A stretch of DNA of 64,000 nt from positions 1,612,001 through 1,676,000 of the forward strand of contig NC_089460.1 in assembly GCF_026210795.1 (NCBI RefSeq), read 5' to 3'. Both the position numbers and the translations under genes were made by a program. Below, one piece after another: positions 1 through 56,279 of this stretch. Below the pieces are notes generated by a model, which saw only the letters and a list, made by a program, of their open reading frames with translations, had not been told where the DNA came from and did no database searches. Source of the DNA: Rhizophagus irregularis. Taxonomy: Eukaryota; Glomeromycota; Glomeromycetes; Glomerales; Glomeraceae. Numbering within the stretch: the stretch's first letter is position 1; every line of letters starts with the position of its first letter.

Positions 1-1298
1 AATGGTAAATTTTCCATATAATAAAATACATATAACATATATTCTTATAAAACTTATTATTATTAGTAAATTTTATTCATATATTATTACTATTTCTACA
101 TAAATATTAGTTATAGATCAAACTGTTACCAATTTTTTTAAACTGAATGATAATCTGTTATTACAGATTGTAATGATAATAATAAATTTAATAGCATTCT
201 TATTAATTTCTTTTTTAATTTTTACTTTTTCAAAATATTTTTCCTTATTCAAATAATTTGTTTTTTTTATTTAATTCTTCAAATTATTAAGTTAATTTTT
301 AATTTTCTTATTTTTAAAAATAGGTTTAAAACTTTATCAAATTTTAAAAATCTATTTAAAACTCAATATTGCATTTTATTTTTGTATTTAAAAATAATTT
401 TAAATAGTTAATAACTATTAGGCCATAATCCAAAATTTTAGTATTCTATTATATAATATTTTATAATGAAATATAATAATAAAATAATTTATTTACTTTA
501 AAAAGCATCTTTAAAGTATTACTAATAGTTGTTTTTATTTAGCAATAATAATAACTAATAAGTTATATTTTATAAATCCTTCTATATTTTTACAATGTAA
601 AAAAAATACATTTAAAATATAATTCTAATGATATTTTAAAATATATTTTTATATTACAGTTAAATAATAACAAATAATATGTAATAAGTTATACAGTATA
701 AATCATATAATTAGTTGTTATTATTATAATTAGTATTTCAAATTTGGCTTGCATAAGACTAAAGATTTATATAAATCCATATAATATATATAATATAGTT
801 TAAACAATTGATAGGATATACCCTACTGTATAAATAATACTTTAAAATTAACTCAAACTCAACTTAACTTATTAGAAATATTAATTATAGTAAACATCCA
901 TCTTATTGGAAAATGAACTTATTATCCTTTGAAATCAAAAATGTAACAATCATTGAAATTAATTTAGTTGATTACTTTAGCACTTTTGGAAATATTTGTT
1001 TATTATTTTATCCAGTTAGTTTTTTTGTTAAGTAAATTCAGAAAACTGATAAAAAGAAATATGGCCAAAAGATTTTGGTAAGCAATTTGAAATAGTATTA
1101 TTTTTCTTTATATAATAGTAAATACATATGATGAATAGTTTCACCTATTTTTTGGCTATTTAACATTTTTTCTTTTTTTTATTAAAACCAAAATAAATGA
1201 AAATGAAAACCCTAACAGTTATTTGCCTTCTGCATCAAAATATAATACCAATATAAATTATAATAAACTTGTATGAAAGGCATATTACAAAAGGCATA

Positions 1299-1589
1299 CA
1301 GTCAACTCTCTATAAATGCACCCTCTATAAATGCACACCCTCTATAAATGCACCTTTTATCTAGTCCCAACTTGGGCCTTAATGCTAAATGCATGGTTTA
1401 TATATATATATATTCTGTAAATGCACCCTTTATAAAAAAATTTTATATAGTTTACTTATAAAAACTTTGTATTACCTTAATTTTAGATTAATATCATATA
1501 GATTTATATGTATTCTATAAATGCACACTCTCTTTAAATGCACTCTTATACCTGGTCCCAAGGGGGATGCATTTATAGAGAGTTGACTG
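1299..1589. mobile_element. TA-flanked MITE (pogo/Tc1-like termini)
   Basis: A 291-bp element has near-perfect terminal inverted repeats. The left end reads CAGTCAACTCTCTATAAATG and the right end is its reverse complement, finishing in GAGAGTTGACTG. TA dinucleotides at 1297-1298 and 1590-1591 fit a TA target-site duplication. Internally the left side carries three head-to-tail copies of the motif CTCTATAAATGCA, and further copies lie near 1510-1545. There is no coding capacity. TA duplication with CAGT-type ends is typical of pogo/Tigger-related Tc1-mariner elements; the family assignment is inference. Confidence 0.85.
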
Positions 1590-2395
1590 TATTACAAATT
1601 GCATAAGAAAAAAGAATTTGCTGAAGAAGCAAACAAAATAATTGAGTCACTTAATTAGCTCAGTTTATAAATAAAACTTAATTTGTGAATTTTTTTGTAT
1701 GAGAATTAAATATATAAATAATAATAATTAAATCATATGAATTATAGCTCAGATTTGTTTTATTTAATTACAATTAAATTTGTTTTTTGAATTAGTTATA
1801 CAAATAATTAGCACATTCTCTAAGTGCTGGAATTAATAATTCCTTTTGTGCAATAGTAATATATGCATTGGTACTTAAGAGTGATTGGATTTCTTTTTTT
1901 TTTTGTGTGCATACCGTTCTGAATGTTCCTATAAACAACTATTTTACTTTATCAAAGGTAATATTGTGCTGTGATTTTTCATGTTATTATTACCCTTCTT
2001 ACTAAGTTCAAATGCATTATAATAAAGATGTGTGAATACATTATATTGCCTATCATAACTTGTACATGGCCAGGACTTTTACTTACCACTTTTCCATTAT
2101 CTAACAAGAATTTGCCTGCATTCCCTTTATTAATAGATCCAGCAAGGATAAACAAATTTTAAAAGGAATACAAATTTATGTTATTATATCGAACTTCAGT
2201 GTTATCTTAATTTTATTTTTCGAACGAATGGCGCAGTAAAATTAAATTAACAAAAAAAAAAAATATTAGTTTAATTATTTGGTCAGTTGACTGACCTAAA
2301 AAGGAAATATTCTTGATTATTTTAATTCCTTTTATGGCTGATATTGCTGAGCTGAGCTAACAAGCGCGTCATATTTGTGAAACTTTAAACTTTAG

Positions 2396-2422
2396 CGCGT
2401 ATCGCGTGATGCGCGATACGCG
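2396..2422. repeat. GC-rich perfect hairpin upstream of the C2H2 gene
   Basis: Two 11-bp arms, CGCGTATCGCG and CGCGATACGCG, are separated by TGATG. It lies about 215 bp before the start codon of the nine-finger gene and stands out in AT-rich DNA. Its role is unknown; a palindromic protein-binding site is possible. Confidence 0.6.
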
Positions 2423-2636
2423 ATTGTTCTTTGTTTTCTTTTTTATTTATGTTGTCATGTGAATCTAATGCCACAATATATATAAATTAATAAATTAAGA
2501 TTTGGTTAAATTAAATCTCTTTCTTTTCAAGTTCATGTTTATTTTTTTCAAAACAAAAAAAAAACAAAAAAATCATAAAACTTATAAAACTTTTACTTCT
2601 TTAAAAAAAGTTTTTAAAAAAAAGCCTACCATCGAA

Positions 2637-3915
2637 ATGAATAGATTTATTGCACCCACTTCATTTAACAATTTTTACACATCAACATTTACGAAATTTG
2701 GTTTGCCTACCTTTCCAAGCTTTGAATACAATGAAGGAGATCCAAATTTCAAAGTAATAATTTACGATTATAAAAATAATTTATTTCGAAATCGAATAAA
2801 TCAAATTCTATAACGTTTTATTTTCTTGTTATTGGACTGACTAGCCAAACAGCAATAAATTCAGTGATGGTGGCATTAATGATAATTTTATGTCTAACGA
2901 GAAAGAAGAAAAACCCGATAAAACTCATTTTGACAATATTGTGGATATCGTTAATCCCTCTAAAGGTGATAAAATTCGCGATGATATTACCTTATACCAA
3001 AGACTAAGGGTCCGTAAACCCAAAACTCAGGATACAGATGCATCAAACCTCGAAATAAAAGAAGAGAAGAAAGAGTTCATTTGTAATGAACCTAATTGCA
3101 AGAGAGTATTTCCAACAAGTCGAGGATTTAATGTACACAAAAGAGTACATTATATTGTATGTGGTGAAGCAGGATGTGGTAAAAAGGTTACAAACAAAAT
3201 GGGCTTACAGAGACACATGAGAATCCACAACAACGTGAAAAAAGTAATTAACGTAAAAAAAGGAATTTATAACATGGAAAGACCAAGGCCGTATAAATGT
3301 GATTGGCCAGGTTGTGGAAGTAGGTTTGAAAAGCGATATACTTTAAAAATGCACATGAGAACTCATACTGGTGAAAAACCATACGATTGTAATTGGCCCA
3401 ATTGTGGAAAGAAATTTTCGCAATTGTATAATCTAAAATGCCACGAAAGGACACACACAGGAGAAAAGCCGTACCAATGTAATTGGGAGCAATGTGGAAA
3501 GAGATTTTCTCAAAAACATACCTTAACTGTTCATATGAGAATTCATACTGGCGAGAAACCTTACGATTGTAATTGGTCTGACTGCGAAAAGAAATTTGCG
3601 CGTTTGTACAGTTTAAAATGTCATATGAGAACTCACACTGGAGAAAGACCTTATAAATGTGATTGGGTGCATTGTAATAAAATGTTTTCCCAATTATATA
3701 CATTAAAATGCCACAAGAGGACTCATTCAGGAGAAAAGTTATATAGCTGTAAATGGTTAGGTTGCGGAAAACAATTTTCCCACCTAAGTAATTGTAAAGT
3801 TCATTATAGACTTCATACTGGTGAAAAGCCGTACAAATGCACTATAAAGAACTGCAGTAAAAGATTTTCCCGAGTGGATTTATGCAAATCGCACATAAAG
3901 ACTCACTGTTTGTGA
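2637..3915 (+). CDS. Nine-finger C2H2 zinc-finger protein
   Basis: Predicted join is 2637..2753 and 2845..3915, giving 395 residues. The intron (GTAATA...CTAG) is inferred: it links the short ORF coding MNRFIAPTSF to the finger ORF in frame, and the upstream in-frame codons around 2845-2889 look coding. If the intron is wrong, the start would be the ATG at 2890. A charged, Lys-rich N-terminus precedes nine consecutive fingers at about residues 117-395. Fingers have C-x4-C spacing, most with a Trp after the first Cys as in DWPGC, and HTGEKPY-type linkers in the second half. C-x4-C fingers with C-terminal H-x3-H are typical of TFIIIA/GLI/ZIC-like families that bind DNA in the nucleus. The first two fingers lack the canonical linker. 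No specific target can be assigned. It is convergent with the S1/P1 nuclease gene. Confidence 0.8.
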
Positions 3916-28484: not shown

Positions 28485-31400
28485 TCAACTGTTTCCTTGT
28501 AAATAACACGGTATACCATAAACCACAGGAGCCGAACCAATTAGATACTTAAGATTACAAACTTTTCTTGCTAATGTGACAGCTTGAACTAATGATACAT
28601 TACTTTTTTGTTTCGTTGGGGTTTCTTCATTAGAGGTTAATCCCCAATTCTTAAACATGGATTTACTGAATCTATCAAAATCCACATCAGTGACATCCCA
28701 TAAATTTGCGACAATTGCTGGGCTGTCACAATAAAATTTGATATAAAATAGTTAACGTTTGTAATGAGTCAAATATATTGAGTTTTATCTTTGCAATTTA
28801 CCTTCCAGCCAATAAATAACTTAGGATTATGCCAGAGGGATCAAATTCCCCTCCTAGCTTTAATCGTCCACTACTACAACCGAATAAAAGTGTTACAGCG
28901 CAACGATCTAAATTTTTAATTTTATTTCTCTTACAATATGTTTCACCAGCACCATGTCCGAAATACCTAACAATATAATTATAATTATTCGATATCATCA
29001 GTAGAAAATATAAATGTAATATAAACTTACATAAAAAGTTCTTTATTTGTTAAACCATCTACCCATTCTTGATCAGTAGGGATCCGTCCAATAATTCCGT
29101 CCGAACCTTTAATACTTTTGCAATAGTTCATTTATTTTGGTTCTTTGACTTTTTGTTTTAAAAAAAAAAGAAATACTTACTTTTTTACAAAATCTTCAAA
29201 TTTATTTTGTGTGTGCTTCAGATTTTGACTTGGATTAAGAACATAAAATATTTTATTCACATCAATGACATAGTCTGACCATTCCGTTTTTTCGCCCCTT
29301 TTATTTTCACCCTTTTTGTTCACATGATTCGTTAGCATGATTCTATCTCTCAAGAACGAAAGAGACGGTAATCTTGAAACGGCTTGAAATCGTAAACATG
29401 GCAAACTTTCCCATGGTAACATTTGCACATTTTTATCAAGAATTAATATAACGTGTTGATTATCATGATTATCGAAATTAGAGTTCATATAATTATCATC
29501 ATCAGATAACGCCTCTTGAACATCCATTATAAGCTTAAAAATTAGAATATAATAATTACTTTAATCATTACTTTTAATTAAAAATGGCGAGTAATTTTAA
29601 AACAAACCTGATCCAAGTCTATTTCATCATATCCGATCTGTTGATCATTGTATTTATTATACGCGTCAACAAGGAAATAAAGAATATCTTCAACATCTTG
29701 ATCTTGTGCATTTGACCCTAGTCGAAGAAATGATTTATAAAGCTCTGTTTCAATATCAAGCTTTCTCATTTTTGAATGCTTTCCAGATAATTTGTTATTT
29801 TCGCATCTGAATAATAAATTATCCATTTTTTCTTTGAATTTTAATATCCTACTGGGAGATTCCTGCCTATCCGCCATTAATATTCCCTGTTTTATAATAA
29901 ATGTTTAAATGCATCATTCTACGAATTTTTTTATATAAGAAAAGCCAATTAAATGAATTTACCTTAAAACCACCAAGCCACCAATTCTCAATATTGAATA
30001 ACAGATCTTTTAGTTTTACATCTAATTCCTTTCTTGCTTTCCACCATGCTTTTGATGTTGAAGGATTTTTGTTAATTTGTTCGGATGAATCTAAAATACC
30101 ATTAAATTCTTTAAGTGCGTCTTCATAACTTAATCCATCGTTTTCTCCATCTCTACATGATTGACGTTTCAATGGCAATCGAAGTAGGAGTGGGGTCGTC
30201 TTCTGTCGATATCGGCAAATGTACATTTCGTCTGTTTCGATGTCAATGGAAATAGAACAAACTGCCCAATTAGGAGGCAAAATATCCAAAAACTCTTTTT
30301 GAAATTCATTATAAGTTAAGGATGATTCATTTTTATATCTCTGAGTTAAATCCATTAAGAAACTTCTACGAGATTCAGTTTCGTCATCATATAAATCATT
30401 ATCTTCATTCTGTAAAATATTAGACTCAGAAGGAAACATAGCAATTTTTTGTGGCCATTGGTTGTCGTCATACAATAAAGGAAAACTTAATTTCTTATCT
30501 AATGCCGCAGACATTTCTCTCTTTGCTGTAAGAGCTTTTGTCATTTCTAAATACCAAATATTTAAATAAAGATACGTTTACTAAATTGAGAAACTAAGGC
30601 CTAAAAAAAATTTGATATATTACCCAGATAAAATGAACAAATAACAGCCATATCACTTTGGATAATGTTTAATTGACTGGCCTTGGTCATGACTACCATC
30701 GAAATGCACAAAGAAGCTTCTTGTAACAAGTGTGTTGGTCCACACTCATATGCTAACTCGTAAACTTCCATCAAATATTCAAGCATCTTGTCAATTTCTT
30801 CGGTTGTAGCTGACGTTGTTAATTTCATGGATTGTTTCGACTTTTTATTAACAACATTATTCATCATTGGTAACGAAAATACTGCAACGTAATAACGTGA
30901 TTTAAAATTAATTCACATTATTAAATTATATACGTATAAAAAATTAAAATTATAATAATTATAATATACCAGAGTCACGGATATTTTCATATAACAAGCG
31001 GTTCTGACTCATTAATTTGGTGGTAATTTCCATTATTTTGACTTTACTCAAAATAAAAATATGTTCAGCCTATAAAAAAAAAAAAACTTTCTTATTCACG
31101 CAATATATGTAAGTTATATATGTCACTCGTTGTTTTAAACATCCAACCTTTTCAAGACATGATTGATTCGAAAGTTTTTCGTGTTCAATCAATCTAAGTC
31201 CCTCTTCGATCTTGCCTCGTTTACTTAAGATCAACCCTGAAAACAAAATTTCTTTACGTTTAGAAGTATACCCATTAATGAAATATCTCAAAAGGTAAAT
31301 ATCAAACAAACCTTGGCGGCGAAAAAGTTCACTTTTAAGATATGAAAGTAAAAAACATTCGTTACTGCCTAACCATTTAATTTATCATATGTTTAATCAT

Positions 31401-39614: not shown

Positions 39615-41946
39615 TTTCCCTACCTTACACATAAGTTATGATTTTATAGATACATTATTTTTGGGTCATTTCTTCATGTATAGGGAGACCTATAATTATG
39701 CTTTAAGCGGATATAATTTACATTACATTTTTTTCTTCTTTTTGTTTAATTATATTCATATTTCTATATTGGTTGTGCCGGGAATAATATTATTTGTTCC
39801 GAAATTATATAATATCGGAGAATTTTTGTTGAATGATTTGTATTAATGAAGGGGGCGCATTACGATGTTATTGTATTATTGAATATATGACATTTTATAT
39901 AAAATCCAAGTTTCTTTATTAACATATCCGCGCCCTCACCTTTTACACCAAATATTGAAGAAAAAATAAGCATTTATTGCAGATTTAAGTTCTTTTTTCT
40001 GGTTACTTTTATATCATAAACTTTATTATTCCATTACTTTTATGCAGCCCTTCTATATATATATGTGTGTCCCTTAAGAAAAATAATTTCTTTGTTTTTC
40101 CTCATGGGAAATTAGTTTTATTATTATATTATTATTATTTTGTATAACAGTTAAGATTATTTTTTTTTCTCCTTCAAAATATCTCTTACAATATGAACAG
40201 GTTGTAAATAAAAAAAAAAGATGACTTTTTAATTATTTTAATATTATGATTAAATCTCTTCGTAAATCGGACGACAATTACGATCATTGATTGGCTAAAC
40301 GAAAGATGTCGTATATAAAGTTCGGAAAAGTGTAACTTTACAGTTCTGCAAGCCACATTAGTTATATTGTGGTGCAATGTACGTAGTTTTACGTCATAAC
40401 AAATCATTCTTTTTTTTTTAATGACAACAGAATAAAAAAAAAAGCCTGGAAAATCTTGACCTACAAAAAATTAGTGATAAAATTAGAATTGGCTGGATTA
40501 TCAGGCCAAACGCCATATTCTGAATGGATGAAAAATACAATATGAATAGAAAAATGGATTATATAAATCTAGAACAATGGCATAATGCAAGATGCCAAAC
40601 TATTATGTTATTTATGCTGGTTAAAACCTGTATTCATAATGACAAAACTTTCGTTACAAATACAATAAAGTAAAAAAAATGTTAGTGCCCTTTCAAACTT
40701 TCATTAAAAAAAAAAAAACTTGTTTACTTATAAATTTGGGTTTATTATAAATAATCATGTGAGATATGCGCCAATTTAAGAAACTGACGCGAAAAAGTAT
40801 ATTCGTCCCCGAATTTTAAATTTGAATATTTGTTACATTTGTTTATACGTGAGAGATTTCGTTAAAACATAAAGCCTATATATTTTTGACAGAAAAATAG
40901 AGTATAATGTTAGTTGATCGTATAATATGATTTCAAGTTAGTACCACGAGGTCTCGATCTGCTGATATGAGATCATAGGTTTGTTGTTTCCTCAAGAGTC
41001 AAGTTACTAACTACTGTATATTACAATTATTTAGATGAATTGGGATCTACTTTGTTTTTCTCGCTTTCAAATTCACAACACTGAATCAACAATCTGACCA
41101 TTTCCCCTAGTTATTACAATGAAACAATGACATATAACCTGATCAGCCTATATATGAATGTAGTTTTTCCTAAAATTCAAAAAGAATGGATTAATTTATC
41201 ATTTTATTATTATTATTCATTATTAAAATTCAGATCTGATAAATTGTTAAGTGTTCAAATTCAAATTTTTGTATTTATAATTCTTAAATACAATTCTTTC
41301 TTTCTTAACACTAATTAACTTTTGAAATTCTGAGATTTTAAAATATTTTATAATACAAAATAAACTTAATAATACTTTTGAAATTTACAACTATTATCTC
41401 AAAATATTCACTTTTTAAACTAAAGGAATTATAAATTTTACCAACAGCAACTCTGATTTCTTAAAGAATTTTAGTTAACAGTCAAAATTACAACTTTGAA
41501 AGAATTTAATTAAAATATAATAGATTAGTCTTAACAGATTGCAGAATAAAGTTATCAGATTTTTATATTATTGAAATATTAAAATCATGTTCCTAAAATT
41601 TATGTATTAAGTAAAGATAATGACTTCAAAATGAAACTTTTATTAATATAAAAAAAAAACCAGGAAATATTACACAATTGAAAATATACATTAAAGAAAT
41701 ATATCAAAAATTTAAGTTACAAGCAATACATCATTGCACTGATAAAAATGCAGATACATGCATAATGTTTGTGGAACCGTATAGAAGAAATCTTGTCTTT
41801 GCATTTCGTTCTGATCAGAGAGTTCTTTGACCATCGGGTGTTACATTTATCTGTGCCTGTACTTATTAGATATCACATGAAATTTGATCAACGCGCAAAT
41901 TGGATCAAGAACGTTAATATATGCGGTAAAACGGTTAATATATAAA
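39615..41946. other. Gene-free interval between Rab5 and methyltransferase
   Basis: I see no coding sequence or clear repeat. Long T and A runs follow the Rab5 stop codon and probably include its 3' UTR. The last 150 bp are likely promoter and leader for the next gene. Confidence 0.5.
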
Positions 41947-43911
41947 ATGCAACTCGATTCAGTGACCGAATTATGTAATTTGACACGTATAGTTGATCAA
42001 AACGAATCTGGTACGCGTCTAGAAAAGTTTGTCTGTCAAAATTTTAGATCTGTAATTATTTCTAAGAAACTCTGTAGAGACTGCTTTAAACGAGGCGAGA
42101 TCTTCGTTAATGGAAAGCCCGCTGAAAGTTCACGTTTACTCCATGAAGGAGATATAATAGATTTACAGATTGACAAACTTGCTTTGAAGAAGGATAAGTT
42201 AGAAATGCCTGTTGCAATAATTTTGGAAGATGAATATTTAGCTGTTATCTGTAAGAATGCAGGTGTATCTATTAGAAACTTGCAAGAAGCTTTGTCATTC
42301 GTACTGGATGGAGGAAGTGGTCTTGTCAAAGAAGGAAAGGAATACACTTGCATTAATCAAACACAAAGAGCAGTTAATGGTTTGGTAAGTTTTTATAATC
42401 AAATATATTGATTAACAATGTCTTAATTTATCTTTAAACTTTATATTTGAAGATCATTGTTTCCAAAACTCGTGAGATAAAAACTAAACTTATGACCTTA
42501 CTTAAAAGTGGTTCTATTCGACAAAGTTATCGGGTACTTTGTCATGGTAAATTTCCTTTGGATGATGAAACTTTTTTTCATAATCACACACCACCTTTCG
42601 CATTACAAAATGTCACTTTCACTCGTAGTACATCCGGTAAAGAAAAGTATATCACAACATTGGATATTATTTTAAATAATTCATCTGCAATTTCAAGTGC
42701 TGGTATTCAAGAATATTTTATTCAAGTACATCATCCTATCGTTGGTTCCAATTCCCGTTCAAAAGAATTGAAGTCGTGCAAAGATAAAAGTTTAATGATG
42801 GCTTTATTAGAAGTCACTTTTAGTCATCCTATAACAAGTGAAGAAATCAAAGTAACTATCAATGAACCGAAAAAATTTGAGGTAGAAAAATAGTTTGCGG
42901 AATTTGGAATTTCAATTAATGCATTTATAAATATTAAATGATTGAATGATTTTTAATCAGAAAGTACGGCAACGCGAGCTAAAGTTTTTTGAGCAAAAGA
43001 AAAATGAAACTATTAAAGAATTGCAACGATATGGAATTGAAATAACTGATCAATTAGATTCAGAAATTATACCAACAGCGTATATTACTGGAGAAAAGGT
43101 ATTCAACTAAAAGTTCATTTGACTTATCCGAATTATGTTTCAATATATTTATTTATAACAAATTTATAATAATTAGGAATTTTTTAAATTAAGATTTTTT
43201 GTTAGTAAAGATACAATGGTTCCTAGACCATCAACAGAATATCTGGTACGAGAAATCATAGACTTATATTTGAATAAATTAGATTCTGGATTCTGGAAAG
43301 ATCGGGGAAATGATGATGATAATATGTTTTCAATATTAGATTGTGGAACAGGATCGGGATGTATTCTTATTTCTGTATTACATTGTATTTTATCTCAGAA
43401 GGTTCAGACAATTTCACCTCATGTTTTTGGATTAGGATTAGATATAAATTCTTCTGCTTTAGAGATTGCTCGTAAAAATGCAGAACGACACTTGAAACTC
43501 TTTGTTTCCGACAACAATAATTATGATTTTCAAAAAGGTGATTTCACAAGTCTACACAATTATGGATTAGTCCATAACAAACATTTTGATATACTTGTAT
43601 GCAATCCACCATATCTGGATATTGCTCGATCACTTCCAAATGATGATGTACGTAATTTTGAACCACCTGAAGCACTTTTTGCCGAAGAAAGTGGTTATAA
43701 ATTTTACCGTCTGTTATATGAATCTTTAGAACATTCATACATAAAAAAGCTTGATATTTTGAAAGAGGATTCTTTAATTATTTTGGAAGTAGGAAATAAA
43801 ATGGCGGAAAAAGTTAAAAAAATTTTCACTGGATGGGAATGTATAAAAGCTATCAGAGATCATCAAGGATTTGAAAGATGTCTGATATTTATCCGAAATT
43901 CGAGCAAGTGA
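41947..43911 (+). CDS. S4 + degenerate RluA-like + HemK methyltransferase fusion
   Basis: Four exons: 41947-42384, 42453-42881, 42961-43098, 43177-43911; 579 residues, every junction in frame. Residues about 24-76 form an S4 RNA-binding domain (RLEKFVCQNF...RGEIFVNGKPAESSRLLHEGD). Residues 89-270 align by eye to the RluA pseudouridine synthase core (ILEDEYLAVICKNAG, then NGLIIVSKTREIK and SYRVLCHGKF). The catalytic HRLDxxTSG signature is replaced by NQTQRAVNG, so the nucleophilic Asp is Gln. The C-terminal half is a PrmC/HemK-type methyltransferase: PTAYITGEKEFF, VPRPSTEYLV, SAM motif DCGTGSG (from D390), and the substrate motif NPPY (478-481). Such enzymes methylate glutamine, classically the GGQ of release factors. 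The start is the first ATG in frame with S4. Interpretation as an RNA- or ribosome-targeted glutamine methyltransferase, perhaps mitochondrial, is inference. Confidence 0.88.
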
Positions 43912-44459
43912 ATTAATTATATGTATAATTTGATGTTATATTATTTTACTAAAAAAGTTCAAATTTTAAATAAGCTGCTATATTAACACAAAATCGAGGT
44001 AGTTTTGATACCTAGTGATTAGTGATCATAATCTTGCTCATTTTTTTATGTTTTATTGATATTAATTAATACAACAATTATACGGTTTTGTAATTAATAA
44101 TTTATACAATAAAATTCATTATTCTTAATATATAATATATATATATATATATGATCCTATTGATCCTATTAGATATTTTAGATATTAAATAACATTGATC
44201 AATAATATCATAAATATCTATAATTTTTTTTTATTTACACTAAATTAAACTAAAATCTAGTTATATAAAAAAGGTTAACAAGATACATACATCTTGACAT
44301 TACCAAATATTTTTTTTTATATTTTATAATAGAAAAATCTCGTGAATTATTTGTTTTTGGTCTCATTACCGAACTAAAAAAAACCCGCAGCTAATGTGCA
44401 TTGTTTGATTTATAGATATGCGACTTATCACAGGTGAAATACCATTTCTGATCTACTGA
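43912..44459. other. Short gene-free interval
   Basis: AT-rich, with a TA microsatellite near 44130-44150. It probably holds the 3' UTR of the methyltransferase gene and the promoter of the next exon. Nothing else is seen. Confidence 0.5.
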
Positions 44460-44561: not shown

Positions 44562-45121
44562 GTTTGTGCTCTGTTCGCGGCACAGGGGACATTAATCCTT
44601 CCCCAAAAGAAAAAACAAATTTAACGAACATTGAAAAAAAAAAATAATACCACCCTTTTCCCTCTCATAACACGCAACCCATCAACTCCCCTACCATCCT
44701 CACCTATATTATTAAAAAAAAAAAAAAAAATTTAAAAAAAATTTTTTTTACATATACCTCGATACCTCGATCTTTTCCCCACCTTTTTATTCCTTTATTA
44801 TTCCTGTGACTTGACCTACCTTACATCGGAACGCTCTCTTGTTCCTCACTCGGGTTTATCTTTGATAAACTCAAGAAGCCGAAAATAATAACTAGAGAAC
44901 CTTACCTTATTCCTTGTTACTAACGACTTTTTTTCCTTCAAAACGGAAAACGGGTTATTTCCGTTATTTTTCTTAGGTTAGGAAGTTTAAGGTAACTAAA
45001 ACAAAATTTATAATAAGAAGTTAGTTATTAAACACGGTTAATAATTAACGTATATTTATAACAATTTGATATACCGAAATTACGAATTATGTAGACTACC
45101 AACAAACTTGACGTGTAAAAA

Positions 45122-46447
45122 ATGGCAAACGACACTCGTACAGGTATTCAAGACCCAGCCGAAATTAATGGAACTAATGTTCCTGCGGTCGCAGCCACAA
45201 ATAACGGTACTACCTCCTCCACCTCCTCCTCTCCTGCCCCCACAGCTCATTCGCTTTTTGACACCCCTTTTGTTGCTTCAACCGATCAAACTGCTACTAC
45301 CGAGATTAGCAGTGTTGAAGAAGATAATAAAGAGTGTACTAATGAGGACGAGGCTGGAGATATATCAAATTCTCAACTTACCCTTAGGGCATTGGTTTCT
45401 ACAAAAGAAGCTGGAGTTATTATTGGCAAAGCTGGTAAAAATGTCGCCGAATTGAGAGAGAGTACTGGTGTTAAAGCCGGTGTATCTAAAGTTGTTCAAG
45501 GTGTTCACGACAGAGTTTTGTCTGTCGCAGGTACCCTTGATGGTGTAGCTAAGGTAAAAATTTTCAATTCTTAAAAACATGTTAAAAAACATTATAGACG
45601 ATATTTATTTTTGAAACTATTAGATTTTTATTAAATTTAGTTCATTACGTTGATCTATTTATAATTTAATTTTTTATCGTAGGCGTATTCTTTGATCGCA
45701 CAAACCCTCCTCGAGAATCCAGTGAATGCAAGCCCTAATTCAACTCCAATTACTCCTCCACCTAATGCATTTACTTCTGTTCGTTTGCTTATTTCCCATA
45801 ATTTGATGGGAACTATTATCGGTCGTCAAGGTGGTAAAATTAAACATATTCAAGATGTCTCTGGAGCTAGGATGGTTGCTTCAAAGGAAATGCTTCCTCA
45901 AAGCACGGAAAGAATTGTGGAAGTTCAAGGAACTGTCGAGGCCATCCGTGTCGCGGTATGGGAAATTGGCAAGTGTCTTATTGAAGATAACGAACGTGGT
46001 ATCGGGACGGTCCTATATAATCCTGCCATTAAAGTAACTTCAAGTTATTCTACCTCTCGTCGTAATGATTATACTACCCGTACTGGCAATGGGACCGATT
46101 TCATTCGCCAACGCAATGATTATCATAATAATAATCGTCGTCAATCCAACAGTAATAACAATTATGATAGTAACACCATTCGAACTCAAAATATTTCTAT
46201 TCCTGCTGATATGGTTGGGTGTATTATTGGCAAAGCTGGTTCCAAAATTTCCGAAATTCGCAGACTCTCTGGTTCTCGTATCAGCATTGCAAAGACGCCT
46301 CATGATGAAACTGGTGAGCGAATGTTTACAATCCAAGGATCTCCCGAAGCCAATGAAAAAGCCCTTTTCTTATTATATAATCAGTTAGAAAATGAGAAAG
46401 AACGTCGTTTGAGTGCAAATGCAAACGGAGGTGATTCTGATGCTTAA
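45122..46447 (+). CDS. Triple KH-domain RNA-binding protein (PCBP/Rnc1-like)
   Basis: Two exons, 45122-45553 and 45683-46447, give 398 residues. A Thr/Ser/Pro-rich N-terminus precedes three KH domains. KH1 has LRALVSTKEAGVIIGKAGKN, split by the intron inside its last helix. KH2 has RLLISHNLMGTIIGRQGGKI, and KH3 has ISIPADMVGCIIGKAGSKI. Each carries a GxxG loop (GKAG, GRQG, GKAG) contacting single-stranded nucleic acid. An Asn/Arg-rich linker lies between KH2 and KH3. The order and length match poly(C)-binding proteins and fission-yeast Rnc1, which stabilise or regulate mRNAs. Read-through of the intron would end six codons later. Several long frames overlap on both strands because of the repetitive Thr/Ala-rich sequence; they are not genes. 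A stop (45116-45118) immediately upstream in frame supports ATG 45122. Confidence 0.93.
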
Positions 46448-50987: not shown

Positions 50988-52504
50988 TCTTAAAAAAAAC
51001 TTTATATTTACAATAATTAAGAAGTTATTCTTGTTGGTAGGTAATAAATAATATATTTTTAAACGATTTAAACTTGAAATCTATTTTCCTCTCAGAGAAA
51101 AAACTGAATTCGATAAAAAAATTTATTTGACTCAAAAGGATATTTTTTTTTTTTCCTCAATTTGATGTAGTTCTTATAAATAGGAAAGTCCAAGACAAAT
51201 ACGGATAAGTTTAAAAAAATAGCAAACGTTTTATTTTCTTTAATAAGAAAAAGACCAAGGATTGTTGAGAGTTTCTAATTATAAATAGAAAATTAATGCA
51301 AGTGATTAAATATGGAATATATGTTTAATTTTTCTTGGCACGAGATCACGTTCACAGCTTTTAGCAAATCAATAGTCTTTGCCAAGAAAAATTACAGTAT
51401 CTTCAGTATTTTCCAGAATACCCATAACTGAATATATAATAATTATAAATTCACGTTTGGTTGATACGCCAAGAAACCAAGAACTCTATTTAAAGAAACT
51501 TATACCTTTTACTTGGCTTTGTAATTTTTTGTAATTTGAAACTTTGGCCGCCAAGATTAACGTCACATATTATTTTATTCTTAAGAAATTTTACAAAAAT
51601 TATGTAAAATAATATTTTTGATGTCGTCATATAATTAGCATGTGAATTGTATTTTTAGAATTTAAAATCAAAGAAATTCCATATGCTTTTCCTCTTTCGG
51701 CTTGGTAAAAAATGTTATTAATATAAAATAATAAAAACAATAATTTTTTCAAAATGCATCGTAGGTTCGTAATAATAAACATTCTTTGAAATATTTCCAT
51801 ATTTATTACTGTATTAAAAGAAAAAAGACATAACATTTTAATATGAAACCTATGCACTTCATGTAATTCTTGTACTTCAAAGTGTTCATAGTGATTCATG
51901 TAATTACAAATAAATGAAAATCTGACGTTAATTGGCTGATTATCTTCTCTTAAACTTTTGCTCCCCATGTTTTATTTTAAAATAGAATAAATATTTGCGG
52001 ATCTTTAGATTCATCCCCATGCTCTCACGATCTTTTTGTTTGGTTAATAATAATAATAAATATACTGTATATTAGTTTTTGAGTTTTGATAATGATCGAT
52101 TATCATGCATATCTTTAGTACATCCATTACATTCAAAGTTAAAGTTTTTAAAAAAAAAAATTAGATTAATAATATTCAAACAATTGATGATATCATTAAC
52201 TTTTTAAAAGTTTCGAGAAATCCAAAATTTTCGCTAAAATTTCGGCACTTTTCAAAAAGGTATTATTATGGGAATTATATTTTATCTTTATTGGTAAATT
52301 ACGTGGATTTTTTTTTTTTCATTTACTGAATGATTGATCTACCATACAGAATATTATTTTGGTTATTTTCATTTTTTAGCCATATTTAAATGGAGATAGG
52401 GCCGGTTTTTCTTGTTTCAGAGAAAGGATCCTTTTTCATATAATTGTAAATAAGACTTTTTTTTTCTTATATCTTTCTTCTTCTTCTTCTTTTTAATAAT
52501 CGTG
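50988..52504. other. Divergent promoter region, PacC gene and alginate-lyase gene
   Basis: It has no gene. It includes the GCCAAG cluster (51334-51555) and a CT-rich run just before the alginate-lyase start (52460-52500). A minus-strand frame at 51627-51968 is probably non-coding. Confidence 0.6.
51334..51555. promoter_or_regulatory. Cluster of five PacC-type GCCAAG sites
   Basis: GCCAAG occurs on the plus strand at 51381-51386, 51468-51473 and 51550-51555, and on the minus strand at 51334-51339 and 51512-51517. All five lie within 222 bp, about 350-570 bp upstream of the PacC-type start codon. The first two belong to a perfect 14-bp inverted repeat (51327-51340 with 51380-51393). GCCARG is the known core bound by Aspergillus PacC. 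Its position suggests self-control, and possibly control of the divergent lyase gene 950 bp further on. Confidence 0.6.
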
Positions 52505-53800
52505 ATGGGATTAAATAATCAAAAAATATTAGTTTTGATCATATTTGGAACTATATACTCTATTTTTATGTGGACATTTGCTCCCGGAGTTAAGGATGAT
52601 CATTTACATATATCTAATATAAATGATAAGTTTTATGCAAACTATCTTGATACTTTCCGTCAACAACATTATAATATGTTATCAAATCTTATCAATAAAG
52701 CAAATAAAGCATTAAAAAATGATTCAGTTTATTCAGTAACTTTAAAACCTCAACTTGCACCTTCAAATGATCCACATGATTACATGTCACTGGCAAGATA
52801 TTTTTGGCCAGACCCAAATAAACCGGATGGATTACCTTATATGAGAAAAGATGGTTATTCTAACCCTGAGATTGAAACTATTAAAGACTATTCTTTATTA
52901 AGAAAATTATTTGATGATGTTGAAAATTTAGGATTTGCTTATTATTTTACAAGAAATGATTCATACGTTGAGAAAGCTGTTTATAGAATTAAAGAATGGT
53001 TTATAAATCCAAAAACAAGGATGAATCCTAATCTTAATTATGCAAGTTTTATTAAAGGTCAAGATTTAGGAAGAAGAACTGGTATAATAGATATGCGACC
53101 TATTTATAGGATGTTACAGTCTATACCTTTAATGCGTTCATCTCGTAAATGGGATCATTCGGTAGAGAAAAAATTTAAAATTTGGTTATCAAAATATTAT
53201 TTTTGGTTAGAAAAAACTTCTATAGGAATAGATGAAAAGGAGTCAACAAATAATCATGGGACATATTATGATGTACAAGCGATTTATCTATTATCTTATC
53301 TAGGCAGAGAAGAGGAGGCACGTAAATATTCATATGAAGCACTAATAAATAGGGTAAATGAAGGAATTCTTCCTACAGGACAACAACCTCATGAAACAAA
53401 ACGCCCAACTTCATGGTATTATTCAACATTTAATTTACAAGCATTATTTCTTTTAGCCGAAAGATCACAATATTTTGGATTTGATGGATGGAATTATGTT
53501 GGACCTGAAGGTCAATCCATTAGAAAAGCTGTTGATTATTTATTATCTTTTGCCTTATCAAATGGGAAAGGTTGGCCTTTTAAAAATATTAATGGATTTG
53601 AAATGAATAATTTTGTTAAATTATTAGAATTAGCTTTTGTTATTTGGCCTGATGATAAATATCTTGAAGCTTTAGTTATTTTAAGACCTAAAGCTAAATT
53701 AGAACAAGCATTAGAATATAAAGATACTGAATGGGAAGACAATTACCTTTGTATTTGGTCTTTAATGACAAATAGGCAATTATGGACTTGTTTAAAATAA
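52505..53800 (+). CDS. Alginate-lyase-family protein, membrane-anchored, copy 1
   Basis: A single exon from ATG 52505 gives 431 residues; a GTG three bases upstream is not used as a start. An N-terminal segment (KILVLIIFGTIYSIFMWTF) is a type II signal-anchor or uncleaved signal peptide. The remainder matches the alginate-lyase fold: YFWPDPNKPDGLPYMRKDG, PNLNYASFIKGQDLGRRTG, and NNHGTYYDVQAIYLLSYLG with the Asn-His pair used in catalysis by related lyases. An aromatic GQQPHETKRPTSWYYSTFN segment and a final LWTC follow. These enzymes cleave mannuronate- or glucuronate-containing polysaccharides by beta-elimination. The natural substrate is unknown; fungal glucuronan or plant uronides are possible. 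No introns, unlike most neighbours. The next gene is a close tandem paralogue. Confidence 0.86.
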   Translation: MGLNNQKILVLIIFGTIYSIFMWTFAPGVKDDHLHISNINDKFYANYLDTFRQQHYNMLSNLINKANKALKNDSVYSVTLKPQLAPSNDPHDYMSLARYFWPDPNKPDGLPYMRKDGYSNPEIETIKDYSLLRKLFDDVENLGFAYYFTRNDSYVEKAVYRIKEWFINPKTRMNPNLNYASFIKGQDLGRRTGIIDMRPIYRMLQSIPLMRSSRKWDHSVEKKFKIWLSKYYFWLEKTSIGIDEKESTNNHGTYYDVQAIYLLSYLGREEEARKYSYEALINRVNEGILPTGQQPHETKRPTSWYYSTFNLQALFLLAERSQYFGFDGWNYVGPEGQSIRKAVDYLLSFALSNGKGWPFKNINGFEMNNFVKLLELAFVIWPDDKYLEALVILRPKAKLEQALEYKDTEWEDNYLCIWSLMTNRQLWTCLK

Positions 53801-54824
53801 TAATCTTTTTAAGGATAAGAAAGAATGATTTTAATAGATCTGTTCTTTATTAGTTTTTTTTGTTAATAAATGATGGGAAGATGAATTTGGTTATTGTTTT
53901 TGGATAATTATAAAAGTTTTTTTTTTTATTCTCTTGTGATCTTACTACCAACCCATTTTTGCTCCTTTTCTTTACAAATTTAGGAAAAAAAAGGTAATAA
54001 ATGTCTTGGCGTTACGGATTTTTTTGGGGGGCAAGAAAACAGGGTTAATGTTGAATTTGAATTAACTGGATTAATACTTAATAATATTTTTTTTAGTTTA
54101 CAAATAAAATTAATAAGAACGTATGATATTAAAATATGATATATATGTTGTACGTATGATAATCAATTAACAAGAGTAATAAAGATGTAATATAATAAAA
54201 ATGGTTAATAATCTACTTTACTAAAGACAGTTTAATAGACAAAAAAGATTTCTAATGTTAATCTCTTTCTTTACCAATTTTCTCTCTAACCTTCTCTCTT
54301 TCCCTTTACTGCCTAACTTCCCTTGCTTCACTCATGAATTGATTGGTTCAAACATCTACTTTCGAAAATACGATAATATAATGCTACATTTTGCTTTACC
54401 CCATTGTAGAATAATATATCCGATAATAATTCATATAAATTGGCTGAGAATGGCGAAAATACTATGATTTACCAATTTTGATAACTGAAGGAAGATCTAA
54501 GAATAAATTACACTGGTTATCGATTACTTAAATAGAAGTTTGACTTGACTGATATAGAAATTTGATACAAAACTTTATTGATGATCCCCGTTTAAATAGT
54601 GTTTGTTTCATTTACCGTTGTACAAAATTAATTTCGGGTTACGAGGTTTCTTAAAAAAAAAGAATAAGGGACAAATTTTTCGCTTAAAAAAAGGATATTT
54701 CTTTTGTTTGTTGTTAAATATAAATAATATATAACAAACTAAAGGGAATAATAAAAAAAAAAAGAAATATTTACGTATATAATAATCTATATTATTTTTT
54801 TTAAAAAAAAATAATTTTTTTCTA
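53801..54824. other. Intergenic between the two lyase genes
   Basis: About 1 kb, AT-rich with many T and A runs. No ORF with protein-like sequence is visible. It likely holds the 3' UTR of copy 1 and the promoter of copy 2. Confidence 0.55.
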
Positions 54825-56279
54825 ATGATTCTACAAAAAATTTTAACTCTATCAATATTTGGAACTTTATGTTTTATTTTTTTATGGACATTTTGGCCGG
54901 AAGATTCTAAACACTTACGTTTAGATGTCTCCTTTCCGGCATCTGTTATTCAACAACCTGAGATAGTTGAGCCGCCAAAACCACAAATAACATCAACAGA
55001 TAATAATAAGAAGATAAAAAATGAACCTATTGAAAAAACTTTACCTTCAAACAAATTATCAACAGTTTATGATGTAAATGGTAATCCTAAAGAGTATACA
55101 AATAGTAGATATTACGCAAATTATCTTTCTATTCTTCGACAACAACATCATCAAATGTTATCAACACTTCTCAATAAAGCGGATAATGCGTTAAGAAATA
55201 ATTCGGTTTATTCAGTAACTTTAAAACCTCAACTTGCGCCTTCAAATGATCCACATGATTTCATGTCGTTAGCAAGATATTTTTGGCCAAATCCAAAAAA
55301 AAAAAATGGGTTACCTTATATAGGACGAGATGGTTATGTTAATCCTGAGATTGAAACTGTTAAAGATTATTCCCTTTTGAGAAAATTATTTAAAGATGTT
55401 GAGAATTTAGGATTTGCTTATTATTTTACAAGAAATGATTCATATGTTGAGAAATCTGTTTATAGAATCAAAGAATGGTTTATAAATCCAAAGACAAAGA
55501 TGAATCCTAATCTTAATTATGCTAGTTTTATTAAAGGTCATAAATCAGGAAGAAGAACTGGTGTATTGGATATGCATCCTATTTATAGAATGTTACAATC
55601 TATACCTTTAATGCGTTCATCGCATAAATGGGATTTTTCAGTAGAGAAAGAATTAAAAGATTGGATATCAAAATATTATCAATGGTTGGAAACAACTTCT
55701 TTAGGAAAAGATGAAAAGTATTCAAAAAACAATCATGGAACATATTATGATGTACAAGCGGTTTATCTATTATCTTATTTAGATAGAGAAGAGGAGGCAC
55801 GTAAATATTCACGCGAAGCATTAATAAATAGAGTAAACAAAGGAATTCTTCCTACAGGACAACAACCTCATGAAACAAAGCGTCCAACTTCATGGTTTTA
55901 TTCAACATTTAATTTACAAGCATTATTTCTTTTAGCCGAAAGATCACAATATTTTGGATTTGATGGATGGAATTATGTTGGTCCTAAAGGTCAAACCATT
56001 AAAAAAGCTGTTGATTATTTATTACCTTTCGCCTTATCAAATGGGAAAGATTGGCCTTTTAAAAACATTAAAGAATTTGAAGTAAATAGTTTTGTTAGAT
56101 TATTAGAATTAGCTTTTGTTATTTGGCCTGATGATAAATATCTTGAAGCTTTAGTTATTTTAAGACCTAAAGCTAAATTAGAACAAGCATTAGAATATAG
56201 AAATGCTGATTGGGAAGATAATTACCTTTGTGTTTGGTCTTTAATGACAAATAGACAATTATGGACTTGTGTTGAATGA
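54825..56279 (+). CDS. Alginate-lyase-family protein, membrane-anchored, copy 2
   Basis: A single exon of 484 residues, tandem to copy 1 and very similar over the lyase domain (about 80% identical by eye from YYANYLS to LWTC). The main difference is an extra stem of about 50 residues after the membrane segment (ILTLSIFGTLCFIFLWTFWP). That stem is rich in Pro, Lys and Asn and probably spaces the enzyme from the membrane. All family motifs are kept: YFWPNPKKKNGLPYIGRDG, NNHGTYYDVQAVYLLSYLD, GQQPHETKRPTSWFYSTFN. It is intronless like copy 1, so duplication of an intronless gene is likely. Substrate and compartment are the same open questions. Confidence 0.87.
   Translation: MILQKILTLSIFGTLCFIFLWTFWPEDSKHLRLDVSFPASVIQQPEIVEPPKPQITSTDNNKKIKNEPIEKTLPSNKLSTVYDVNGNPKEYTNSRYYANYLSILRQQHHQMLSTLLNKADNALRNNSVYSVTLKPQLAPSNDPHDFMSLARYFWPNPKKKNGLPYIGRDGYVNPEIETVKDYSLLRKLFKDVENLGFAYYFTRNDSYVEKSVYRIKEWFINPKTKMNPNLNYASFIKGHKSGRRTGVLDMHPIYRMLQSIPLMRSSHKWDFSVEKELKDWISKYYQWLETTSLGKDEKYSKNNHGTYYDVQAVYLLSYLDREEEARKYSREALINRVNKGILPTGQQPHETKRPTSWFYSTFNLQALFLLAERSQYFGFDGWNYVGPKGQTIKKAVDYLLPFALSNGKDWPFKNIKEFEVNSFVRLLELAFVIWPDDKYLEALVILRPKAKLEQALEYRNADWEDNYLCVWSLMTNRQLWTCVE

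What the first reader, a model, noticed from the sequence alone, without database searches (positions are those of the whole stretch)
41947..43911. Dead pseudouridine-synthase domain fused to a HemK-type glutamine methyltransferase
One spliced reading frame joins S4, an RluA-like fold with its catalytic HRLDxxTSG replaced by NQTQRAVNG, and a PrmC/HemK methyltransferase with intact DCGTGSG and NPPY. S4 and RluA bind rRNA, so the dead synthase could act as an RNA-docking module for a methyltransferase. I do not recall this architecture being described, though that needs a domain search. Seen: motifs and frame. Known: functions of S4, RluA and PrmC families. Inferred: docking role.
Basis: partly seen in the sequence, partly recalled or inferred. 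Interest (0 to 1): 0.75.

Follow-up and report, generated by a model that had tools for sequence, protein, structure and literature searches.

The report
Dead pseudouridine synthase joined to methyltransferase
A gene of a mycorrhizal fungus appears to join a worn-out RNA-modifying enzyme, which can probably only bind RNA, to an intact-looking enzyme of the kind that methylates translation-termination proteins, but RNA reads are still needed to prove that it is one gene.

Summary
The sequence observation holds. Window 41947-42893 encodes an S4 domain plus an RluA-type pseudouridine synthase fold (profile alignment over residues 8-288; fold match to RluC/RluD). The catalytic Asp (RluD D139) is Gln140 and RTHQIRVH is lost. 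Window 42961-43911 encodes a HemK/PrmC methyltransferase with intact SAM motif and NPPY.

The join is inferred. Splice scores favour the intron (above 19 of 21 reference introns; 9 of 1000 shuffles reach the best real bridge), and 52 nt is far below this species' mean UTRs.

The genome (Rhizophagus irregularis, inferred from assembly statistics) also holds a HemK with the PrmC_N domain, which the window copy lacks, and three other RluA-type loci that keep the Asp. So the usual recruiting domain seems replaced by S4 plus dead RluA. RNA docking and the target are inference; transcripts and orthologues could not be examined. New variant of known kinds.

The parts
41947..42384 (+). Exon 1: S4 domain and first part of the RluA-type domain, ending in NQTQRAVNG where HRLDxxTSG is expected
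   Evidence: predicted model matches RluD 2ist at E 2.9e-6
42385..42452 (+). Intron 1 (GTAAGT...GAAG, 68 nt)
   Evidence: splice score 9.2, above 7 of 21 reference introns; RluA homology continues across it
42453..42881 (+). Exon 2: second part of the RluA-type domain; RTHQIRVH lost
42882..42960 (+). Inferred intron 2 (GTAGAA...TCAG, 79 nt), which holds TAG 42891-42893; an acceptor at 42993 is an alternative (568 residues)
   Evidence: score 12.4, above 19 of 21 reference introns; acceptor 42993 scores 13.6; GC 0.215
42961..43098 (+). Exon 3: linker and short helical lead-in of the methyltransferase; PrmC_N domain not detectable
43099..43176 (+). Intron 3 (GTATTC...TTAG, 78 nt)
   Evidence: score 9.3, above 7 of 21 reference introns; HemK homology continues across it
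43177..43911 (+). Exon 4: HemK/PrmC methyltransferase domain with DCGTGSG and NPPY, stop included
44108..44113 (+). AATAAA, possible poly(A) signal of the whole gene
   Evidence: weak: AATAAA occurs 3.3 times per kb in the window

Best explanation
One spliced gene of Rhizophagus irregularis encodes a 579-residue protein (or 568, with acceptor 42993): S4 domain, RluA-type pseudouridine synthase domain without catalytic residues, and a HemK/PrmC-type glutamine-N5 methyltransferase. Shown: the domains, the loss of the catalytic Asp and of RTHQIRVH, the intact methyltransferase motifs, no detectable PrmC_N domain, and a separate full-length HemK elsewhere in the genome. Inferred: that the halves share one mRNA; that S4 plus dead RluA still bind rRNA (or another structured RNA); and that this module takes over the recruiting role of the lost PrmC_N and brings the methyltransferase to a Gln of a GGQ protein on the ribosome, while the C14 HemK serves the ordinary mitochondrial release factors. 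My odds: one gene about 0.75; synthase dead 0.97; active SAM methyltransferase about 0.85; RNA/ribosome docking of a GGQ methyltransferase about 0.35.
For: Domains. Dead motif: 19 of 69 invariant RluD columns kept, D139 is Gln140. Join: intron score above 19 of 21 reference introns and 9 of 1000 shuffles reach the best real bridge; 52-nt gap against mean UTRs of 116 and 250 nt; ATG 42946 lacks a purine at -3 and follows two short upstream ATG frames; no AATAAA in 42891-43140 (weak). Domain swap: the C14 HemK has PrmC_N at E 1.1e-8, the window copy none at E up to 1. Possible targets: four RF-1-family loci with GGQ.
Against: No transcript and no orthologue was available. The intron matrix is small and its reference introns were themselves inferred. 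The best-scoring acceptor, 42993, is not the one in the 579-residue model. The first frame stops 3 codons past the domain end and the second has its own ATG, as two genes would. No targeting sequence follows Met1, so location is unknown. Binding of RNA, target and activity are untested; TIGR03534 is below its cut-off.
Confidence: 0.45

Rival explanations
1. Two proteins: a 292-residue dead S4-RluA protein (stop 42891-42893) and a 295-residue HemK-like protein (ATG 42946), from two tightly packed genes, a bicistronic mRNA, or retention of intron 2.
For: Both frames are complete on their own; the RluA homology ends at residue 288, right at the stop.
Against: 52 nt between them against mean UTRs of 116 and 250 nt; poor start context; intron score; a separate HemK would start without most of PrmC_N.
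Confidence: 0.25
2. One fused protein, but the dead S4-RluA half is mainly a structural factor of ribosome assembly (as reported for mt-LAF3), and the methyltransferase acts as usual; the fusion only co-delivers the two.
Against: The loss of PrmC_N from this copy suggests that the new N-terminus changed recruitment; no targeting sequence after Met1.
Confidence: 0.25
3. A decaying pseudogene.
For: Heavily diverged RluA domain.
Against: No stop in the spliced frame of 579 codons (chance about 5e-23 at this composition); coding-like GC by codon position in both halves.
Confidence: 0.03

Closest known systems
RluA-family pseudouridine synthases (TIGR00005; E. coli RluD, PDB 2ist)
   Same: S4 plus RluA fold in the same order over residues 8-288
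   Different: Catalytic Asp is Gln, RTHQIRVH lost, 19 of 69 invariant columns kept; apparently followed by a methyltransferase
HemK/PrmC glutamine methyltransferases (HEMK1, Mtq1)
   Same: TIGR00536 over its cut-off, SAM motif, NPPY
   Different: PrmC_N not detected; TIGR03534 below cut-off; N-terminus apparently S4-RluA
RPUSD3 and trypanosome mt-LAF3
   Same: RluA relatives whose catalysis is lost or not needed (passages)
   Different: No methyltransferase domain is mentioned in the passages read; RPUSD3 Asp is Gly, here Gln
PrmC-TrmB fusion (NF002421) and TlyA-type S4-methyltransferases (the latter recalled)
   Same: PrmC fused to an RNA-acting domain; S4 domain fused to a methyltransferase
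   Different: Neither has an RluA domain (recalled); NF002421 scored 92.5 against a cut-off of 567

Membership tests
RluA-family pseudouridine synthase | RluA fold and sequence homology | tested here: met
RluA-family pseudouridine synthase | Catalytic Asp in HRLDxxTSG | tested here: not met
   D139 of RluD aligns with Gln140
RluA-family pseudouridine synthase | Pseudouridine formation | not testable with these tools
   needs an assay
S4 RNA-binding domain | S4 sequence and fold | tested here: met
   Pfam S4 E 0.01, below cut-off; RluF model and RluD alignments cover it; exon 1 model matches RluD and S4 proteins
HemK family methyltransferase (TIGR00536) | Score over the curated cut-off | tested here: met
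   124.5 against 115.5 for the 295-residue form
HemK family methyltransferase (TIGR00536) | SAM motif and NPPY | tested here: met
   DCGTGSG and CNPPY read in the translation
PrmC proper (TIGR03534 equivalog) | Score over the curated cut-off | tested here: not met
   170.9 against 199.1; the C14 HemK is also below, 177.6
PrmC proper (TIGR03534 equivalog) | PrmC_N domain (PF17827) | tested here: not met
   no match at E up to 1 in the 295- or 579-residue form; C14 HemK E 1.1e-8
PrmC proper (TIGR03534 equivalog) | Methylation of a GGQ glutamine | not testable with these tools
   needs an assay
RPUSD3/mt-LAF3-type silent RluA protein | RluA fold without catalysis | tested here: met
   (sequence only; no assay)
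RPUSD3/mt-LAF3-type silent RluA protein | Orthology or mitochondrial location | tested here: inconclusive
   No targeting sequence after Met1; fold match to mt-LAF3 only

The most novel reading that the evidence does not exclude
A glutamine methyltransferase has swapped its release-factor-binding N-terminal domain for an S4 plus dead pseudouridine synthase module, which guides it by RNA contact to a GGQ protein or ribosomal protein on the ribosome: a retired RNA-modifying enzyme reused as the address tag of a protein-modifying one.
Probability: 0.25. Interest if true: 0.75.

Novelty: new variant of a known kind. Interest (0 to 1): 0.5.

Why it matters
If true, it shows a dead RNA-modifying enzyme kept as a targeting domain of a protein methyltransferase, and gives a way to test whether GGQ methylation can be tied to the ribosome. 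It would also give an arbuscular mycorrhizal fungus an extra release-factor-type methyltransferase beside its canonical-looking one.

Tried and rejected
The window gene as the fungus's only organelle-type RluA gene: rejected, since C18 (L148) has an S4-RluA gene with VHRLDK followed by an apparent intron and a targeting-like N-terminus, read by eye.

PrmB (ribosomal protein L3 methyltransferase) identity: TIGR03533 scores 72.8 against 170.9 for TIGR03534, so PrmC-like is preferred.

Paralogues of the fusion: own-genome protein searches returned only this locus for the S4-RluA half, and this locus, C14 and two weak hits (E 0.10 and 0.13) for the methyltransferase. TIGR00536 gave seven further weak partial matches (E 3.6e-5 to 0.9) that I did not follow up. 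These searches score only the best candidates.

Bacterial relatives of the methyltransferase: the genome-contig scan with exon 4 gave 46 pattern matches and no relative. Its patterns were not the conserved ones, so this says nothing about absence.

Exon 2 alone against the RluD profile is weak (Prob 5, E 0.007); the fold match rests on a model made with RluD rows.

Literature: I read listings only (titles, starts of abstracts) (4 of 4 papers listed; 6 of 6; 15 of 26; 12 of 254; 4 of 4); none of the listed titles or abstract starts describes this fusion. The library is open-access only, so this is no proof of novelty.

Dropped rows: of 33 adjacent exon pairs in nine PF00118 loci, 4 were skipped for wide gaps, 3 gave no candidate and 5 had no 50-150 nt candidate, leaving 21. 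L052 was fetched and not used. Of 80 RluD loci, 62 gave a protein of the wanted length, 21 went into the structure alignments and 39 rows into.

Full report
What organism. The window is G000:C32:1612001-1676000 of a genome of 146,748,485 bases in 32 contigs. Contig C13 is 5,085,394 bases long, exactly the scaffold N50 of the 32-scaffold Rhizophagus irregularis DAOM197198 assembly (PMC10234402, passages read; published size 146,773,001). I take it to be that assembly; this is inference.

The frame. Without it there are two complete frames, of 292 and 295 residues, with 52 nt between TAG 42891-42893 and ATG 42946.

One gene or two. I built a splice-site matrix from inferred introns of nine PF00118 (chaperonin) loci of the same genome; 21 of 33 adjacent exon pairs remained after filtering. 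The inferred intron 42882-42960 scores 12.4, higher than 19 of the 21 reference introns scored leave-one-out; introns 1 and 3 of the gene score 9.2 and 9.3. The best bridge overall is 42882-42993 (13.6), which gives 568 residues. Nine of 1000 dinucleotide shuffles of 42861-42985 gave a bridge at least as good as 13.6; every shuffle had some bridge, so an open frame alone means nothing here. The matrix is small and its introns are themselves inferred, so this is support, not proof. The region has GC 0.215, against 0.16-0.18 in introns 1 and 3 and 0.31-0.36 in the exons, but non-coding flanks are similar (0.19-0.21), so this does not separate intron from intergenic DNA. Mean 5' and 3' UTRs in this species are 116 and 250 nt, so 52 nt is very short for two UTRs and a promoter. 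ATG 42946 has T at -3 and follows two short upstream ATG frames. No AATAAA lies in 42891-43140, and one lies at 44108, about 200 nt after the last stop; at 3.3 per kb, and with 56.7% of poly(A) sites using it, this is weak. I put one gene at about 0.75.

It looks dead. Against 39 RluD rows, 19 of 69 invariant columns are kept; the catalytic Asp139 aligns with Gln140, HRLDKDTTG is NQTQRAVNG, and of RTHQIRVH only the Ile column is kept. The three other RluA-type loci found in this genome, C12, C13 and C18, keep the Asp by eye. C18 also has S4 and a targeting-like N-terminus, so the fungus has an active-looking organelle-type synthase and the window gene is an extra, silent relative.

The methyltransferase half. 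TIGR03534 E 3.4e-50 (below its cut-off) and TIGR00536 124.5 bits (above it), PDB HemK 1sg9 E 5.3e-22, with SAM motif and NPPY. The residue before NPPY is Cys, small like the Ser/Gly of PrmC, HEMK1 and Mtq1 and unlike the Phe of HEMK2 (rule from PMC8904536, passages read). The genome has a second, single-exon HemK on C14 with a PrmC_N domain (E 1.1e-8); the window copy shows none at E up to 1. That PrmC_N helps to bind the release factor is recalled, not tested.

How it may work. The parts suggest a domain swap: the recruiting domain of a PrmC-like enzyme replaced by S4 plus a synthase fold that may still bind RNA. Precedents for RluA relatives without catalysis are RPUSD3 (PMC12716993, passages read) and mt-LAF3 (review PMC11469412, passages read; its primary paper was not held). 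The same review passages credit a complex that includes RPUSD3 with mt-mRNA pseudouridines, so the two sources differ on RPUSD3. Possible targets are four RF-1-family loci with GGQ (C15, C26, C8, C1), C1 being a weak match (E 0.03-0.04). Which target, which RNA and which compartment are unknown. No targeting sequence follows Met1; the in-frame 22 codons before it are basic and lack acidic residues but have no ATG.

Verdict. Observation confirmed; fusion likely but unproven; docking a plausible inference. New variant of known kinds, interest 0.5.

Noticed in passing
window 41881-41946: The 22 in-frame codons before Met1 (no ATG) read as a basic stretch without acidic residues, like a mitochondrial targeting sequence; a non-AUG start or an upstream exon could add it. 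A short upstream ATG frame starts at 41877.
   Followed up: partly
L007 1402-2367 (C14): A single-exon, full-length HemK with PrmC_N; a HEMK2/Mtq2-looking NPPY frame lies beside it on the other strand (by eye).
   Followed up: partly
L148 about 972-3060 (C18): A multi-exon S4-RluA gene that keeps HRLD and has a targeting-like N-terminus, probably the active organelle-type synthase.
   Followed up: partly
window 52454-53800 and 54786-56279: Two neighbouring, similar frames matching the Alginate_lyase family (PF05426, E 1.1e-69 and 2.5e-71), both with a hydrophobic N-terminus: a tandem duplicate.
   Followed up: no
window 45119-46447: A KH-domain RNA-binding gene just downstream on the same strand (three KH_1 stretches in two frames).
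   Followed up: no
window 29867-30577 (- strand): A frame matching Peptidase_C50 (separase), E 1.1e-22.
   Followed up: no
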